A stretch of 64,000 nt of DNA from Desulforamulus hydrothermalis Lam5 = DSM 18033 (GTDB lineage: Bacteria > Bacillota > Desulfotomaculia > Desulfotomaculales > Desulfotomaculaceae). This document shows positions 1 through 59,587 of the stretch, in pieces. The DNA is taken from positions 124,001 to 188,000 of the forward strand of contig NZ_CAOS01000013.1 of assembly GCF_000315365.1 (NCBI RefSeq), given 5' to 3'. A program made the translations under genes and the position numbers. The notes beneath the pieces are model-generated. The model made no database searches. It saw nothing but the letters and a program-made list of their open reading frames with translations, and was not told the origin of the DNA. Every line of letters starts with the position of its first letter. Position 1 is the stretch's first letter.

Positions 1-232
1 TATGATCCCCTTTAGCTCCGGTCTACGCACCGACAGCACTATGATTCGCTCCGTTCGCCATTGATGTCGCCTCAAACGGGCCATCCTGGCCCGGTTCGGC
101 TGGCGCCCACGTCCTGTGGGCGCCACCCCAATGGCTCCTACGCTTATCAAGTGCTGTTACCGGTGCTTCGACAAGTCGCCGGCAGGGGATCATAAAACCA
201 CTTTTTTGTTATTACAGCTTTGTATGCATATT
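1..232 (-). repeat. Copy A of the dispersed terminator-associated element, cut by window start
   Basis: This non-coding copy lies in the minus orientation relative to the reference copy at 33292-33554. The inner inverted-repeat motif TATGATCCCC is at the window edge and GGGGATCATAAAACCAC lies near 186-202. Between them are the internal hairpin GGCGCCCAC/GTGGGCGCC and the CGGGCC/GGCCCG hairpin. The outer end on the right is degraded and the other end is outside the window. Short ORFs across it are shadows. Confidence 0.8.
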
Positions 233-2066: not shown

Positions 2067-2298
2067 CAGCTTGTAGAAAAGGTGGTAAAACAAAATTGAG
2101 GTGGTTTTGTGGTCCCCTGCCAGCAATTTATCGAACAGCACTTGATGTGGCGAAACAGCCGTTGGGGTGGCGACGGCGGGAAGTGGGCGCCGGTCAAACC
2201 GGACAGGAGGGCCGGTTTGGATGGGAGCAAATCATTGTGCTGTCGGAGCATCGACCGGAGCCAAAGGGGATCATCATCCAGCGGTTGCAGGGACACCC
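2067..2298 (+). mobile_element. Copy B of the dispersed element, inserted in the spoVA leader
   Basis: A 232-bp diverged copy flanked by 16-nt direct repeats (2051-2066 and 2299-2314; one mismatch, core TTAACAGGTGTC). The left end CAGCTTGTAG and inner motif GGTGGTTTTGTGGTCCCCT resemble the consensus ends. The right part keeps GTGCTGTCGG and GGAGCCAAAGGGGATCAT. It is more diverged than copies F, I, J and L, so probably older. Unlike those, its target is not an obvious terminator. Short ORFs across it are not conserved between copies. Confidence 0.75.
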
Positions 2299-2332
2299 TT
2301 AACAGGTGTCCCTAAAACTATCACAGTAAGGG

Positions 2333-6385: not shown

Positions 6386-6490
6386 GGCAGCTCTTTTCGC
6401 TTTCAAGCGCTGTTGCCGGTAGTTCGACAAGATTGGCAGGGGCTCAAAAAACACCCCTGCGTTGTTATTTACACCTTTGTCTGCAGCCTG
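6386..6490 (-). repeat. Copy C of the dispersed element (half-element remnant)
   Basis: Only the segment corresponding to one end remains: TTTCGCTTTCAAGCGCTGTT, TTCGACAAG, GGCAGGGG and the outer end ACCTTTGTCTGCAGCCTG. It is clearly diverged. It lies directly behind the spoVA terminator, and no second copy of that hairpin is seen on its other side. Confidence 0.65.
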
Positions 6491-14683: not shown

Positions 14684-14807
14684 CAGACTGTAGACCAAGG
14701 AGACCAAGGTTGTAAAACAAAATGAGGTGGTTTTATGATCCCCTGTCGGTGCGTAGACCGGAGCCAAAGGGGATCATAAACCACCGATAATGTTTGGCGA
14801 CACTCTG
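14684..14807 (+). mobile_element. Copy D of the dispersed element, internally deleted
   Basis: A 124-bp copy with both outer ends (CAGACTGTAGACC and GGCGACACTCTG) and inner inverted repeats (GGTGGTTTTATGATCCCCT / AGGGGATCATAAACCACC) but no central hairpins. The junction is CTGTCGG, a heptamer present on both sides of the missing region in full copies, so a deletion between short direct repeats is likely. It is flanked by perfect 23-nt direct repeats. Confidence 0.85.
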
Positions 14808-16744: not shown

Positions 16745-16895
16745 GCGGGTACTTTATGATTCCAAGTCGGTTGCATGTAACCTTTCGCACCTCAAGTGCT
16801 GCTGGCGGCGTTTGGGTAAGGCCGGCAGGGATCAAAAAAACAGCTCAACTGGCTGCCCAATCTTTTTCTACAGTCTGTTTGTCTTCATCAAGACA
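16745..16895 (-). repeat. Copy E of the dispersed element (degenerate)
   Basis: Weak but ordered similarity to the element in minus orientation: TTTATGAT near 16755, CACCTCAAGTGCTG near 16789, GGCAGGGATCA near 16826 and CTACAGTCTG at about 16869. The central hairpins are lost. It again lies directly behind a terminator (16692-16726). Confidence 0.5.
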
Positions 16896-22144: not shown

Positions 22145-22402
22145 CAGGCTGAAGACAAAGGATGTAACCAAGTGGTTTTATGATCCCCTGCCGGCGACTT
22201 GTCGAAGCACCGGCAACAGCACTAGATGAGCGAAAGGAGCCCTTGGGGTGGCGCCCACAGGATGTGGGCGCCAGCCGAACCGGGCCAGGAGGGGCCGTTT
22301 GAGGCGAACCCAAGGGCGACTGTAGCGAATCATAGTGCTGTCGGTGCGTAGACCGGAGCCAAAGGGGATCATAAACCACCGGCAATATTTGTCGACACTC
22401 TG
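22145..22402 (+). mobile_element. Copy F of the dispersed element (full length)
   Basis: A 258-bp copy with outer ends CAGGCTGAAGACAAA and TTTGTCGACACTCTG and inner repeats GTGGTTTTATGATCCCCT / AGGGGATCATAAACCAC. The nested arms CAGCAC/GTGCTG and CCCTTGGG/CCCAAGGG surround the hairpin GGCGCCCAC/GTGGGCGCC. It is flanked by 24/23-nt direct repeats, each a complete terminator. It sits between convergent genes (fdh and the chemoreceptor). Confidence 0.9.
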
Positions 22403-24647: not shown

Positions 24648-24762
24648 TGCTCCTCCGGATTGTGGACAAGCCTTGCCGGCGGTTTATCACCGTTCCGGTT
24701 TTCGCACCGCCGGCAGGGAATCATAAAACCACCGTAAACTTGTTTGTACAACTTTGTTGACA
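24648..24762 (-). repeat. Copy G of the dispersed element (rearranged remnant)
   Basis: The right-hand part matches the element in minus orientation: GCCGGCAGGGAATCATAAAACCACC (24709-24733) and the outer end ACAACTTTGTTGAC. The left part (TTGCCGGCGGTTTATCACCG) is rearranged. It lies close to the terminator at 24587-24620. Confidence 0.6.
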
Positions 24763-26331: not shown

Positions 26332-26550
26332 TTATTGTCACTCCGGGAACCGACGGCACTATGATTCGCACCGGCCCTTGGGATTGCCTCAAACGCCCCC
26401 TTTTGGACCGGTCCGGCCGGCGCCCACATTATGCGGGCGCCCCCCAATGGCTCCTTTCGCTCATCAAGTACTGTTACCGGTGCTTCGACAAGTTGCCGAC
26501 AGGGGATCATAAAACACTCCCCTTGTTTTACAACCTTTGTCTACAGTCTG
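26332..26550 (-). repeat. Copy H of the dispersed element, one end lost
   Basis: The element in minus orientation from about CGACGGCACTATGATTCG to the outer end TTTGTCTACAGTCTG (26536-26550), with the central hairpin GGCGCCCAC...GCGGGCGCC partly diverged. The end facing the hydrogenase promoter is truncated. The outer end on the other side supplies the last codons and stop of the minus-strand gene 26541-26777. Confidence 0.8.
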
Positions 26551-30055: not shown

Positions 30056-30320
30056 CAGAGCGTCGACAAACGTTATCGGTGGTTTATGATCCCCTTTGGC
30101 TCCGGTCTACGCACCGACAGCACTATGATTCGCTACGGTCGCCCTTGGGGTCGCCTCAAACGGGCCATCCTGGCCCGGTTCGGCTGGCGCCCACGTCCTG
30201 TGGGCGCCCCCCCAAGGGCTCCTTTCGCTCATCAAGTGCTGTTACCGGTGCTTCGACAAGTCGCCGACAGGGGATCATAAAACCACCTTCCCTTGTTTTA
30301 CAACCTTTGTCTCCAGTCTG
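30056..30320 (-). mobile_element. Copy I of the dispersed element (full length)
   Basis: A 265-bp copy in minus orientation with outer ends CAGAGCGTCGACAAA and TTTGTCTCCAGTCTG and inner repeats GGTGGTTTATGATCCCCT / AGGGGATCATAAAACCACC. The nested pair CCCTTGGGG/CCCCAAGGG is fully complementary here. Flanked by direct repeats of about 20-22 nt, each a hairpin. Predicted proteins of about 64 residues across it are translations of the repeat and are not genes. Confidence 0.9.
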
Positions 30321-33097: not shown

Positions 33098-33265
33098 ATG
33101 GCCGAAAACAGGGTTTACGATTATGTGTTGACTCCCGAAGAGCTGGAAGAAATTTGGGCTAAGTACGGTAAGCCCGGTGAAATTGCCCCGGGAACCAAGG
33201 CGACTAAAAAGCGTAATCATAGAAAAAATCAGCAAAACATTGCAGAATCCGATAAGACACGGTAA
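33098..33265 (+). CDS. Short unknown protein
   Basis: A 55-residue protein starting MAENRVYDYVLTPEELEEIW at ATG 33098, behind GGGAGGGG. The N-terminal half is acidic and structured in appearance, the C-terminal half basic (KATKKRNHRKNQQN). The good ribosome binding site and the terminator directly after the stop support a real gene. No function can be given. Confidence 0.6.
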   Translation: MAENRVYDYVLTPEELEEIWAKYGKPGEIAPGTKATKKRNHRKNQQNIAESDKTR

Positions 33266-33267
33266 AT

Positions 33268-33291
33268 TAACCTGCCTGTTAGGGCAGGTTT
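33268..33291 (+). terminator. Terminator hairpin, left duplicate flanking copy J
   Basis: AACCTGCC/GGCAGGTT hairpin 2 nt after the stop of the 55-residue gene. The 24-nt sequence is repeated exactly at 33555-33578. Confidence 0.85.
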
Positions 33292-33554
33292 CAGACTGTA
33301 GACAAAGGTGTAAAACAAAGTGAAGTGGTTTTATGATCCCCTGTCGGCGACTTGTCGAAGCACCGGTAACAGCACTTGATGAGCGAAAGGAGCCATTGGG
33401 GTGGCGCCCACAGGACGTGGGCGCCAGCCGAACCGGGCCAGGATGGCCCGTTTGAGGCGACCCCAAGGGCGACCGTAGCGAATCATAGTGCTGTCGGTGT
33501 GTAGACCGGAGCCAAAGGGGATCATAAGACACCGATATGTTTGTCGACATTCTG
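33292..33554 (+). mobile_element. Copy J of the dispersed element (reference full-length copy)
   Basis: A 263-bp copy exactly bounded by perfect 24-nt direct repeats. Outer inverted ends are CAGACTGTAGACAAA and TTTGTCGACATTCTG; the inner end is GTGGTTTTATGATCCCCT with GGGGATCAT opposite. Inside are ACAGCAC/GTGCTGT, TTGGGG/CCCCAA, then the hairpin TGGCGCCCAC/GTGGGCGCCA and CGGGCC/GGCCCG. No ORF is conserved between copies. Confidence 0.92.
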
Positions 33555-33582
33555 TAACCTGCCTGTTAGGGCAGGTTTTTTG
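33555..33582 (+). terminator. Terminator hairpin, right duplicate flanking copy J
   Basis: Second copy of the AACCTGCC/GGCAGGTT hairpin, followed by TTTTTTG. Confidence 0.88.
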
Positions 33583-55675: not shown

Positions 55676-55757
55676 AGTCGCTCAGCAAGTGCTGTGACAG
55701 GTGTTGTGACAAGTTGCCGGCCGGGTGATCATAAACCACCGGCAAGGTTGGTTAACT
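55676..55757 (-). repeat. Copy K of the dispersed element (remnant)
   Basis: A short remnant in minus orientation: CGCTCAGCAAGTGCTGT, TGTGACAAGTTGCCGG and TGATCATAAACCACCGGCAA. The outer end and the central hairpins are missing. It lies between aroA and its probable terminator. Confidence 0.65.
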
Positions 55758-57227: not shown

Positions 57228-59255
57228 GTGGTCTTTATTGAGGTGTTATTGGCCAACAAGGCCGGATTTTGCTATGGTGTAAAGCGCGCCATTGAAATGG
57301 CTTTGCAGGCTGCCAGGGTAAAAAAAGCAAACATTTATACCTTGGGGCCGTTAATTCATAACCCACAAGTGGTGCAAGATTTGGCCAGGCAGGGGGTAAA
57401 AGAAATAAATGACCTGGCTGAAGTGACAGAAGGCAGCATCATTATCCGATCCCATGGGGTGGGCCCGCAAATTTTTCAGCAAGCCGGAGAAAAAGGCCTG
57501 GAAATAATTGATGCAACTTGTCCCTTTGTGGCAAGAGCCCAAAGGGCGGCTCATGCTATGGCCGAGCAGGGCTTGCCTGTTTTCATCCTGGGAGACCCGG
57601 GTCATCCCGAGGTGCAAGGTATTCTGGGCTGGGCCATGGGTATGGGTGTGGTAATAGAAAATGCTGATCAATTAAGTCGGGTGGATCACCCTAAGGTAGG
57701 GGTCGTGGCACAGACGACGCAGCCTTTGGCTAATTACCTGAAATTGGTTGAAGCGCTTGAAAAACAAGGAGTAGAAGTGGATGCACGCAACACCATTTGC
57801 CATGCGACCGGAGAACGCCAGCGCGCTGCCCTGGAACTGGCTCAAAAAGTGGATGTTATGGTTGTGGTGGGCGGCAAAAACAGTGCCAATACCAAAAAAC
57901 TAGCCAGGATTTGTCAGGAAACCGGGACTCCCACCTATCATGTTGAATCTGCGCAGGAGCTGCGGGAAGAGTGGTTTTACGGCCATCGAATTCTCGGCCT
58001 GACAGCGGGTGCTTCAACACCTGACGCAATTATAGAGGAGGTTAAAAGAAGGATGAAGGATCTGGACCAGATGACCAACGGCGAAGAAGGAATGAACGAA
58101 GCAATGGAAGTTAAATCTCCCCAACCCGGGGAATTAGTCAAAGGCGTAGTTGTTCAAGTTGGCATGGATGAAGTAATGGTAGACATTGGCGCCAAGTCCG
58201 AGGGTGTAATTCCTCGGAAGGAGCTGGCTTTTTATGGTATAGATCCCCAGGAGGTTGTAAAAGTCGGGGATGAAATAGAGTGCGTTGTCATTAAAGCCGA
58301 GGACAATGAAGGGAAAATTATCCTTTCCAAAGAACGGGCTGACGCCGAAAAGGCCTGGGGCGGCCTGGAAGAGGCTTTGGAAAAAGGCACCGTGATTAAA
58401 GGTGTAGTCCGGGAGGTTGTTAAAGGCGGCTTGCTGGTAGATGTTGGCATAAGAGCTTTCTTACCGGCTTCCCTGGTGGAACGTGGTTATGTAGAAGACT
58501 TATCCAAATACCTCAATCAGGAAATTGAAGTACGTGTCATTGAGCTGAACAAACACCGTAAAAAAGTGGTTGTTTCCCGTAAATCTGTTTTAGAAGAACA
58601 GCATGCCCGCCGGCGGGAAGAACTGCTGGCCTCCCTCCAGGAAGGCCAGGTTGTCAAAGGGACAGTACGACGTCTTACCAACTTTGGTGCTTTTGTAGAT
58701 TTGGGCGGCTTAGACGGTTTGCTGCATATTTCAGAAATGAGCTGGCACCGGGTTAACCATCCCCAGGAAGTGGTAAAAGCCGGTGATGAGCTGGAAGTAA
58801 TGGTATTGAAGGTAGATCGGGAGAACGAAAAAATTTCTCTCGGTCTCAAACAAGTTTTACCCAACCCCTGGGATAACATTGAAGAAAAATATCCTGTCGG
58901 CAGCGTGGTGCCTGCCAAAGTGGTTCGCCTGGCTCCCTTTGGCGCTTTTGTACAATTAGAACCCGGGGTTGAGGGGCTGGTACACATTTCTCACTTAGCT
59001 GCCCAGCATGTGGAAAAGCCGGAGGATGTGGTAAACGAGGGCGATGAGGTTAACGTTAAGGTGCTTAATGTTGACCCGGCTGAAAAACGCATCCGCCTTT
59101 CCATTCGTGAAGTAAGCGGTGAAGGACGGTCTGCCCGGGAATCCCGCCAGCGCAAACAGGAAGAGCCGGCTCCCCAGCCCCAGGCAATTGAAAGCCCTGA
59201 GGAAAGGGTTACTCTGGGCGATGTATTTGGCGACATGTTTAAAGAAGATAAGTAA
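57228..59255 (+). CDS. ispH-rpsA: IspH-ribosomal protein S1 fusion
   Basis: A 675-residue two-part protein. Residues about 1-285 are 4-hydroxy-3-methylbut-2-enyl diphosphate reductase with the three cluster cysteines in AGFCYGV, DATCPFV and NTICHATG; it is the last step of the MEP isoprenoid pathway. Residues about 300-645 contain four S1 RNA-binding repeats (for example VKGTVRRLTNFGAFVDLGGL). Such fusions are known in Clostridia. The GTG at 57228 follows AAAAGGA; the IspH homology starts five codons later, at a sequence reading ATT GAG GTG. Confidence 0.94.
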   Translation: MVFIEVLLANKAGFCYGVKRAIEMALQAARVKKANIYTLGPLIHNPQVVQDLARQGVKEINDLAEVTEGSIIIRSHGVGPQIFQQAGEKGLEIIDATCPFVARAQRAAHAMAEQGLPVFILGDPGHPEVQGILGWAMGMGVVIENADQLSRVDHPKVGVVAQTTQPLANYLKLVEALEKQGVEVDARNTICHATGERQRAALELAQKVDVMVVVGGKNSANTKKLARICQETGTPTYHVESAQELREEWFYGHRILGLTAGASTPDAIIEEVKRRMKDLDQMTNGEEGMNEAMEVKSPQPGELVKGVVVQVGMDEVMVDIGAKSEGVIPRKELAFYGIDPQEVVKVGDEIECVVIKAEDNEGKIILSKERADAEKAWGGLEEALEKGTVIKGVVREVVKGGLLVDVGIRAFLPASLVERGYVEDLSKYLNQEIEVRVIELNKHRKKVVVSRKSVLEEQHARRREELLASLQEGQVVKGTVRRLTNFGAFVDLGGLDGLLHISEMSWHRVNHPQEVVKAGDELEVMVLKVDRENEKISLGLKQVLPNPWDNIEEKYPVGSVVPAKVVRLAPFGAFVQLEPGVEGLVHISHLAAQHVEKPEDVVNEGDEVNVKVLNVDPAEKRIRLSIREVSGEGRSARESRQRKQEEPAPQPQAIESPEERVTLGDVFGDMFKEDK

Positions 59256-59265
59256 ATACCCTATT

Positions 59266-59293
59266 ATGCGGCTGCCTTATAGGCAGCCGCTTT
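59266..59293 (+). terminator. Terminator hairpin, left duplicate flanking copy L
   Basis: GCGGCTGCC/GGCAGCCGC hairpin followed by TTT, 10 nt after the ispH-rpsA stop. Repeated at 59556-59583 with one mismatch. Confidence 0.85.
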
Positions 59294-59555
59294 AGAGTGT
59301 CGACAAAGGTTGTAAAACAAAGTGAGGTGGTTTTATGATCCCCTGCCGGCGACTTGTCGAAGCACCGGTAACAGCACTTGATGAGCGAAGGAGCCATTGG
59401 GCTGGCGCCCACAGGACGTGGGCGCCAGCCGAACCGGGCCAGGAGGGCCCGTTTGAGGCGACCCCAAGGGCGAACGGAGCGAATCATAGTGCTGTCGGTG
59501 CGTAGACCGGAGCCAAAGGGGATCATAAACCACCGATAATGTTTGTCTACAATCT
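59294..59555 (+). mobile_element. Copy L of the dispersed element (full length)
   Basis: A 262-bp copy with ends AGAGTGTCGACAAA and TTTGTCTACAATCT, inner repeats GGTGGTTTTATGATCCCCT / AGGGGATCATAAACCACC, and an intact hairpin TGGCGCCCAC/GTGGGCGCCA. It is very similar to copy J 26 kb away. Flanked by 28-nt direct repeats, each the ispH-rpsA terminator. Confidence 0.92.
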
Positions 59556-59587
59556 ATGCGGCTGTCTTATAGGCAGCCGCTTTTAAT
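59556..59587 (+). terminator. Terminator hairpin, right duplicate flanking copy L
   Basis: GCGGCTGTC/GGCAGCCGC hairpin followed by TTTTAATTTT. One substitution relative to the left copy leaves a G-U pair. Confidence 0.85.

What the first reader, a model, noticed from the sequence alone, without database searches (positions are those of the whole stretch)
33292..33554. The element has nested complementary segments along its whole length, suggesting a folded RNA
Going inward from both ends of copy J: outer ends pair, then TATGATCCCC/GGGGATCAT, then ACAGCAC/GTGCTGT, then TTGGGG/CCCCAA, then the hairpins TGGCGCCCAC/GTGGGCGCCA and CGGGCC/GGCCCG. A transposition-only MITE needs only its ends; conservation of ordered internal pairs across copies F, I, J and L suggests selection on structure. 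In copies F and I the inner pair is CCCTTGGG/CCCAAGGG, while J and L have ATTGGGG opposite CCCCAAG, so some variation exists to test covariation. Transcription through the left terminator would yield the RNA.
Basis: partly seen in the sequence, partly recalled or inferred. Interest (0 to 1): 0.7.

Follow-up and report, generated by a model that had tools for sequence, protein, structure and literature searches.

The report
Terminator-hopping mobile structured RNA element
A small mobile DNA element carries a known type of folded RNA and inserts next to the "stop transcription" hairpins of bacterial genes, duplicating the whole hairpin each time, so it spreads widely without an obvious break in those stop signals.

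Summary
The nested pairing in copy J is real (z = -10.5) and the strand-specific RNA reading is right at family level: the core is Rfam TwoAYGGAY (RF01731), and 30 diverged relatives covary strongly, with G-U far above A-C mismatches. But the repeat is a MITE. Copy J ends in CAGACTGTAGACAAA/CAGAATGTCGACAAA inverted repeats. Among copies in this genome with both ends and flanks, 65 of 72 are bordered by a direct duplication of a locus-specific stem-loop, usually an intrinsic-terminator hairpin (mispaired control 59 of 5112). At J, relatives have one terminator and no element. The same inverted repeats and hairpin duplications bound a ~1.6 kb IS1182-family insertion sequence in relatives; its close transposase is absent here. 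RNA-less ~112-bp derivatives also carry duplicated hairpins, so the RNA is not needed for movement. Copy-specific mutations show no preference for unpaired sites or for keeping pairs, so individual copies look neutral; variants shared between copies avoid paired sites. Best reading: an IS1182-driven, terminator-targeting MITE carrying a TwoAYGGAY RNA with two CsrA-type GGA loops. CsrA binding is unproven.

The parts
33292..33554 (+). Copy J: 263-bp MITE, ends CAGACTGTAGACAAA ... TTTGTCGACATTCTG (inverted repeat)
33353..33507 (+). TwoAYGGAY RNA core (RF01731), 58.0 bits; the outer stem TTTTATGATCCCC/GGGGATCATAA extends beyond the Rfam model
33402..33426 (+). Hairpin 1 of the RNA, loop with GGA (CsrA-type motif)
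33434..33450 (+). Hairpin 2 of the RNA, loop with GGA
33268..33291 (+). Left copy of the duplicated terminator hairpin (TAACCTGCCTGTTAGGGCAGGTTT), without its own long T-run
33555..33578 (+). Right copy of the same hairpin, followed by the T-run (intact intrinsic terminator)
   Evidence: empty orthologous site with a single terminator
33098..33265 (+). Conserved small ORF (55 aa) whose terminator was the target; the ortholog in G005 ends in one terminator and has no element
1..223 (-). Copy at the window edge (right end outside the window); RNA core 20-173
2067..2303 (+). Degenerate copy; flank duplication below threshold (8.5)
14684..14807 (+). RNA-less short derivative with its own duplicated hairpin (23 nt, perfect)
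22145..22402 (+). Copy F with RNA core 22200-22354 and duplicated hairpin
26349..26550 (-). Copy lacking its right end
30056..30320 (-). Copy I with RNA core 30104-30258 and duplicated hairpin
59293..59556 (+). Copy L with RNA core 59355-59508 and duplicated hairpin (26 nt)
6390..6490 (-). Left-end fragment
16781..16877 (-). Left-end fragment
24708..24757 (-). Left-end fragment
55678..55739 (-). Internal fragment

Best explanation
The element is a ~263-bp MITE mobilised in trans by an IS1182-family DDE transposase. SHOWN: the mobilising family and the MITE share ~15-bp ends; both sit between two direct copies of a stem-loop whose sequence differs from locus to locus; in G000 that stem-loop is usually a gene's intrinsic-terminator hairpin; one orthologous empty site has a single terminator; the cargo is a TwoAYGGAY RNA with strong family-level covariation. 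INFERRED: the transposase recognises the stem-loop (as a cruciform or on single-stranded DNA) and joins the element's ends at the two feet of the hairpin on opposite strands. Gap repair then duplicates the whole hairpin, so duplication length follows hairpin length rather than being fixed. Because the copy beside the T-run (or A-run, for insertions in the other orientation) remains a terminator, insertion is nearly harmless, which would explain the high copy number. The RNA is made only where upstream transcription reads through the left hairpin, giving gene-[hairpin]-[TwoAYGGAY]-[terminator]. Its two GGA-loop hairpins could bind CsrA (one csrA gene is present), but most individual copies look like neutral passengers.
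For: RNA family. Covariation 0.626 vs shuffled 0.214 +/- 0.013 (0 of 500) and at most 0.121 when slid. G-U vs A-C 43:10 cells, 25:7 distinct. Flank duplication 65 of 72, control 59 of 5112, median 22 nt. Empty site at J in two relatives (L122, L127). Autonomous IS with same ends, 5 loci in G003 all with duplicated palindromes. Transposase NF033551 IS1182, 446 and 456 bits vs cut-off 270. Same behaviour in G007 (2 of 2 looked at, of 3 loci) and in Peribacillus and Cetobacterium plasmids (2 of 4 plasmid copies looked at). RNA-less derivatives with duplicated hairpins (7 of the 8 copies under 150 bp). Divergent gene pairs, which lack terminators, hold only 3 of 66 copies. TIR-bearing TwoAYGGAY copies with duplicated hairpins in another family (G094).
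Against: No transposase close to the partner is in this genome, so mobilisation is inferred from relatives. Beyond the ~15-bp ends the MITE and the IS are not similar, so an unknown related IS could be the true partner. 7 of 72 copies show no duplication. In G002 most of the 20 copies examined (of 36) have different left and right hairpins; I read this as recombination or misassembly but did not prove it. Transcription, cruciform recognition and CsrA binding are untested.
Confidence: 0.85

Rival explanations
1. A host-selected, dispersed regulatory RNA: the copies act as CsrA sponges or cis-acting 3'-UTR elements and are maintained because the RNA is useful at many loci.
For: TwoAYGGAY covaries and keeps GGA in both loops (29 of 30 and 27 of 30 homologues; AGGA in 60 of 62 first loops). 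csrA is found in 22 of 27 TwoAYGGAY genomes against 40 of 86 others (Fisher p 0.0017, counts, test). Variants shared between copies avoid paired sites. Rfam places it in the Csr-Rsm clan.
Against: Copy-specific mutations are indifferent to pairing. Orientation relative to co-directional genes is 24 sense vs 16 antisense, p 0.27. RNA-less copies persist. 5 of 27 TwoAYGGAY genomes have no csrA hit, including one 95% complete (G023). The csrA association ignores phylogeny.
Confidence: 0.2
2. Retrotransposition or group IIC-intron-like insertion after terminators.
For: Group IIC introns also insert next to terminator hairpins (recalled, not from a call).
Against: Inverted-repeat ends, an autonomous DDE-transposase partner with the same ends, duplication of the target hairpin, and no orientation rule. 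No group II intron match in the window at Rfam gathering scores.
Confidence: 0.03
3. The internal inverted repeats are a DNA feature needed for transposition (for example cruciform extrusion), not an RNA.
For: The whole element is one long imperfect inverted repeat.
Against: The 111-146 bp derivatives without the core also have duplicated hairpins (7 of 8). G-U is preferred over A-C 43:10 across species, which is strand-specific. The RNA also exists outside these ends (L065, L068, L072-L074, L189).
Confidence: 0.07

Closest known systems
TwoAYGGAY RNA (Rfam RF01731)
   Same: Covariance-model match above gathering score, two GGA-loop hairpins on a multi-stem core
   Different: Known as an RNA motif of unknown function (table entry in PMC2864571 seen). 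Here it is cargo of a MITE present in over 50 copies; loops in copy J are one nucleotide shorter than AYGGAY.
IS1182-family insertion sequences; IS1272 and TnSha1 of staphylococci (PMC5678879 and PMC4923244, passages read)
   Same: Stem-loop and terminator targeting, no sequence consensus, same transposase family
   Different: IS1272 and TnSha1 delete or replace the stem-loop and make no duplication. Here the whole stem-loop is duplicated, the outcome drawn as pathway b in the model of PMC5678879.
E. coli RrA/RrB/RrF sRNAs between dual rrn terminators, binding CsrA in vitro (PMC8144298, abstract and outline seen)
   Same: [quoted passage not shown] proposed CsrA ligand
   Different: That paper describes rRNA-operon sRNAs, not a mobile element; sequence relatedness was not tested here. 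CsrA binding is shown there, only predicted here.
Bacterial MITEs with RNA or terminator properties (BOX, RUP, SPRITE; Coxiella QMITEs; review PMC10969869, passages read)
   Same: Short non-autonomous repeats that can form structured transcripts
   Different: None of the passages read describes an Rfam RNA as cargo or hairpin-length target duplication.

Membership tests
TwoAYGGAY RNA (RF01731) | Covariance-model score at or above the curated gathering score (43 bits) | tested here: met
   5 matches in the window, 51.6-62.9 bits; 55 in the genome at E <= 0.001, all over the cut-off
TwoAYGGAY RNA (RF01731) | Conserved secondary structure supported by covariation with relatives | tested here: met
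   29 of 31 pairs with both-side changes in 30 sequences; score 0.626 vs shuffled 0.214
TwoAYGGAY RNA (RF01731) | Two terminal loops of the form AYGGAY | tested here: inconclusive
   GGA is kept, but copy J loops read A-GGAC and A-GGAU, one base short; the Rfam model aligns this as a deletion and many relatives share it
MITE of an IS1182-family element | Terminal inverted repeats shared with an autonomous IS1182-family IS | tested here: met
   about 15 bp; no similarity seen beyond them
MITE of an IS1182-family element | Autonomous partner in the same genome | tested here: not met
   Only relatives at 21-25% identity, with other inverted repeats; close partners are in congeners G003 and G005. 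A MITE can outlive its partner, so I treat this as a limit on the claim of current mobility.
MITE of an IS1182-family element | Stem-loop target with duplication, as for the partner IS | tested here: met
   65 of 72 MITE copies; 9 of 11 autonomous copies looked at
Csr/Rsm-type CsrA-binding RNA | GGA motifs presented in hairpin loops | tested here: met
   29 of 30 and 27 of 30 homologues
Csr/Rsm-type CsrA-binding RNA | csrA present in the host | tested here: met
   One gene in this genome; 22 of 27 TwoAYGGAY genomes in the order
Csr/Rsm-type CsrA-binding RNA | Physical binding and titration of CsrA | not testable with these tools
   Needs gel shift or CLIP
Group IIC intron | Intron RNA domains or reverse transcriptase | tested here: not met
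   No such Rfam match in the window at gathering scores; partner is a DDE transposase

The most novel reading that the evidence does not exclude
A conserved CsrA-ligand RNA family has become a travelling 3'-UTR module. An IS1182-type transposase whose target duplication is measured foot to foot on a hairpin writes it between duplicated terminators of dozens of genes, adding roughly 100 or more potential CsrA sites. TwoAYGGAY also appears to have been picked up by other carriers in other clostridial families (G035/G036), so the RNA itself may favour repeated capture.
Probability: 0.2. Interest if true: 0.85.

Novelty: new variant of a known kind. Interest (0 to 1): 0.62.

Why it matters
It links two loose ends. 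TwoAYGGAY, an orphan Rfam RNA, turns out to be spread as MITE cargo in at least two families of the order. A subfamily of IS1182 elements shows in natural copies the 'duplicate the whole stem-loop' outcome that had been drawn as one pathway of a structure-dependent transposition model. The dozens of natural insertions, with an empty site, make target recognition and the RNA's role directly testable.

Tried and rejected
IS1182 transposases of this genome as mobiliser: L062 and L063 rejected, inverted repeats differ (GAGCCAATTGCAAAATT type). Other Rfam families in the element: only sub-threshold chance matches. Within-genome covariation: 20 both-changed paired cells (17 distinct) vs shuffle mean 7.7, maximum 16, but 11 of the 17 lie in the terminal repeats (model positions 1-21 with 245-265), so it is not evidence for the RNA core. 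Sense-orientation selection: 24 vs 16, not significant; the gene calls were a simple open-frame rule and mis-assigned J's small upstream gene. The element in phage records: no match. One search stopped with an error on a copy without flank; it was rerun as with 1 flankless copy and 1 duplicate skipped, and 18 one-ended groups dropped. Nine of 62 divergent copies were dropped before the singleton test (53 used). Extra variability at the ends may partly be misalignment.

Full report
1. Observation. Folded as RNA the copy gives -136.9 kcal/mol against -83.7 +/- 5.1 for 200 shuffles. The example of variation is not covariation: F and I have GCCCTTGGGG, J and L have GCCATTGGGG or GCCATTGGGC, while the facing arm is CCCAAGGGC in all four, so J and L carry a mismatch.

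2. RNA identity. Rfam's TwoAYGGAY model (RF01731, clan CL00106) matches five copies in the window, J with 58.0 bits against a gathering score of 43. [quoted passage not shown] A motif paper proposed that TwoAYGGAY binds CsrA (PMC4333381, passages read); the discovery paper lists it as probable RNA, probably not cis-regulatory (table passage). The genome holds 55 matches at E <= 0.001.

3. Family-level covariation. I aligned 30 cores from G000 and relatives across the order, a hand-chosen set from the fetched loci. RNAalifold gives 31 pairs, 29 with both-side compensatory changes. Counting: 91.6% of cells paired, covariation score 0.626, shuffled 0.214 +/- 0.013 with 0 of 500 reaching it, slid controls at most 0.121. 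The tool warns that shuffles ignore relatedness and that a structure derived from the same alignment is favoured. G-U outnumbers A-C 43 to 10 cells (p 5.6e-6) and 25 to 7 distinct pair-types (p 0.002), so the constraint acts on this strand, as RNA.

4. What the repeat is. I fetched about 3 kb around the places found by the RNA and DNA searches, then part of the further inverted-repeat places (one search lists 64 and one search counts 154 in this genome). Nearly all of the 59 copies first laid out showed a stem-loop on the left repeated on the right, with a different stem-loop from locus to locus. Scored objectively, 65 of 72 copies with both ends and flanks have a flank duplication (score >= 9) against 59 of 5112 mispaired flanks. 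Duplications have a median of 22 nt, range 9-29 by this scoring, and most fold as one hairpin. The seven exceptions are window 2067, L012 (second copy), L043, L101, L104, L119 and L147. Among 65 copies, a T-rich tail only on the right occurs in 22, an A-rich lead only on the left in 17, both in 10, neither in 16.

5. Empty site. In D. putei (G005, L122) and in G007 (L127) the ortholog of the small gene upstream of J ends in a single terminator hairpin and there is no element. In this genome the hairpin stands on both sides of J (33268-33291 and 33555-33578). G005 is named through an exact core match on NZ_FQUY01000003.1, Desulforamulus putei DSM 12395, whose 176,135-base contig has the length of G005:C37. 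The window's own genome is in the same genus by handle; its species name was not obtained.

6. Partner. Pairs of the end motif ~1607 bp apart occur at five places in G003, and at the ends of the first 1606 bases of contigs C17 and C28 of G005. All five G003 loci are flanked by duplicated palindromes of about 21-27 nt. They encode a 498-515-aa frame with DUF772 and DDE_Tnp_1_6 domains that passes NCBIfam IS1182 (446 and 456 bits, cut-off 270). G007 copies at 54-55% identity (2 looked at, of 3) and plasmid relatives in Peribacillus (1 of 2) and Cetobacterium (1 of 1) show the same duplication; Arthrobacter (0 of 1) does not. In all, 9 of 11 copies looked at. This genome has only two distant IS1182 relatives, with other ends. 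G005 also carries other ~174-183 bp elements with the same ends.

7. RNA not needed for movement. Eight copies of 111-146 bp lack most or all of the RNA core; seven have duplicated hairpins of their own. Several share the same internal junction, so the short form itself spread.

8. Selection on copies. In 62 full-length copies, variation per site-copy is 1.9% at G-C-paired core sites, 3.3% at A-T-paired, 6.7% at unpaired core sites and 11.3% at the ends. This alone would suggest constraint. Restricted to variants seen in one copy (53 copies), paired sites have 56 in 152 and unpaired 18 in 56 (p 0.69); G-U-keeping vs A-C-breaking is 13 vs 15. Variants shared by two or more copies are rarer at paired sites (22 in 152 vs 20 in 56, p 0.0015; an approximate test on variant counts). 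So structure may be held in the propagating lineage, not at each locus. Orientation to co-directional neighbours is 24 sense, 16 antisense; 23 convergent and 3 divergent pairs among 66.

9. Wider distribution. csrA is found in 22 of these 27 against 40 of 86 others, not corrected for phylogeny. In G094, another family, six of ten copies looked at (L163, L183, L186, L188, L190, L192) have the same end type and matching hairpins; L189 and L191 have neither; L185 and L187 are incomplete. G035/G036 carry TwoAYGGAY in units with other ends. In G002, 20 of 36 copies were examined: most have unlike hairpins, but the same hairpin recurs left of one copy and right of another, and L085 and L095 keep a matching pair.

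10. Literature. Searches on TwoAYGGAY, IS1182 with terminators, palindromes or duplications, IS1272, MITEs with terminators and CsrA with mobile elements listed no paper that I recognised as describing TwoAYGGAY as mobile or IS1182 duplication of whole hairpins. The library lacks most subscription papers. From recall only: IS catalogues give a wide direct-repeat range for IS1182, so duplication as such may be on record there.

11. Mechanism. PMC5678879 (passages) models IS1272 as replacing stem-loops and notes that joining at the 5' feet would duplicate the whole stem-loop. These elements show that second outcome. Shown: the duplications, the shared ends, the transposase family, one empty orthologous site. 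Inferred: cruciform recognition, trans-mobilisation, read-through transcription, CsrA binding.

Noticed in passing
L062 (G000:C6, around 4.7-7.9 kb): An IS1182-like IS sits inside a CRISPR-like array (at least 19 repeats, GTTTCAATTCCTTATAGGTAGGCTAATAAC) in this genome.
   Followed up: partly
L165, L169, L197-L213 (G035/G036): TwoAYGGAY copies in another family lie in longer repeats with different ends, near terminator-like hairpins: possibly a second, unrelated carrier of the same RNA.
   Followed up: partly
L164, L184, L214-L219 (G069): At least 22 TwoAYGGAY matches in this genome; those looked at have long GC-rich outer arms and no IS1182-type ends: another multi-copy form.
   Followed up: partly
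L039 1486-1750 flanks: The two copies of the duplicated hairpin differ by a compensated change (GGCC..GGCC to GGTC..GACC) in the copy next to the T-run, as if terminator function is still selected there.
   Followed up: no
L113 (G000:C10:83600-85800): A short RNA-less copy and its neighbourhood are tandemly duplicated (718 bp apart).
   Followed up: no
L081-L100 (G002): Left and right terminator hairpins are swapped between copies, which suggests recombination between MITEs or repeat misassembly.
   Followed up: partly
window 57228-59255: LytB domain fused to several S1 domains in one 675-aa frame (Pfam).
   Followed up: no
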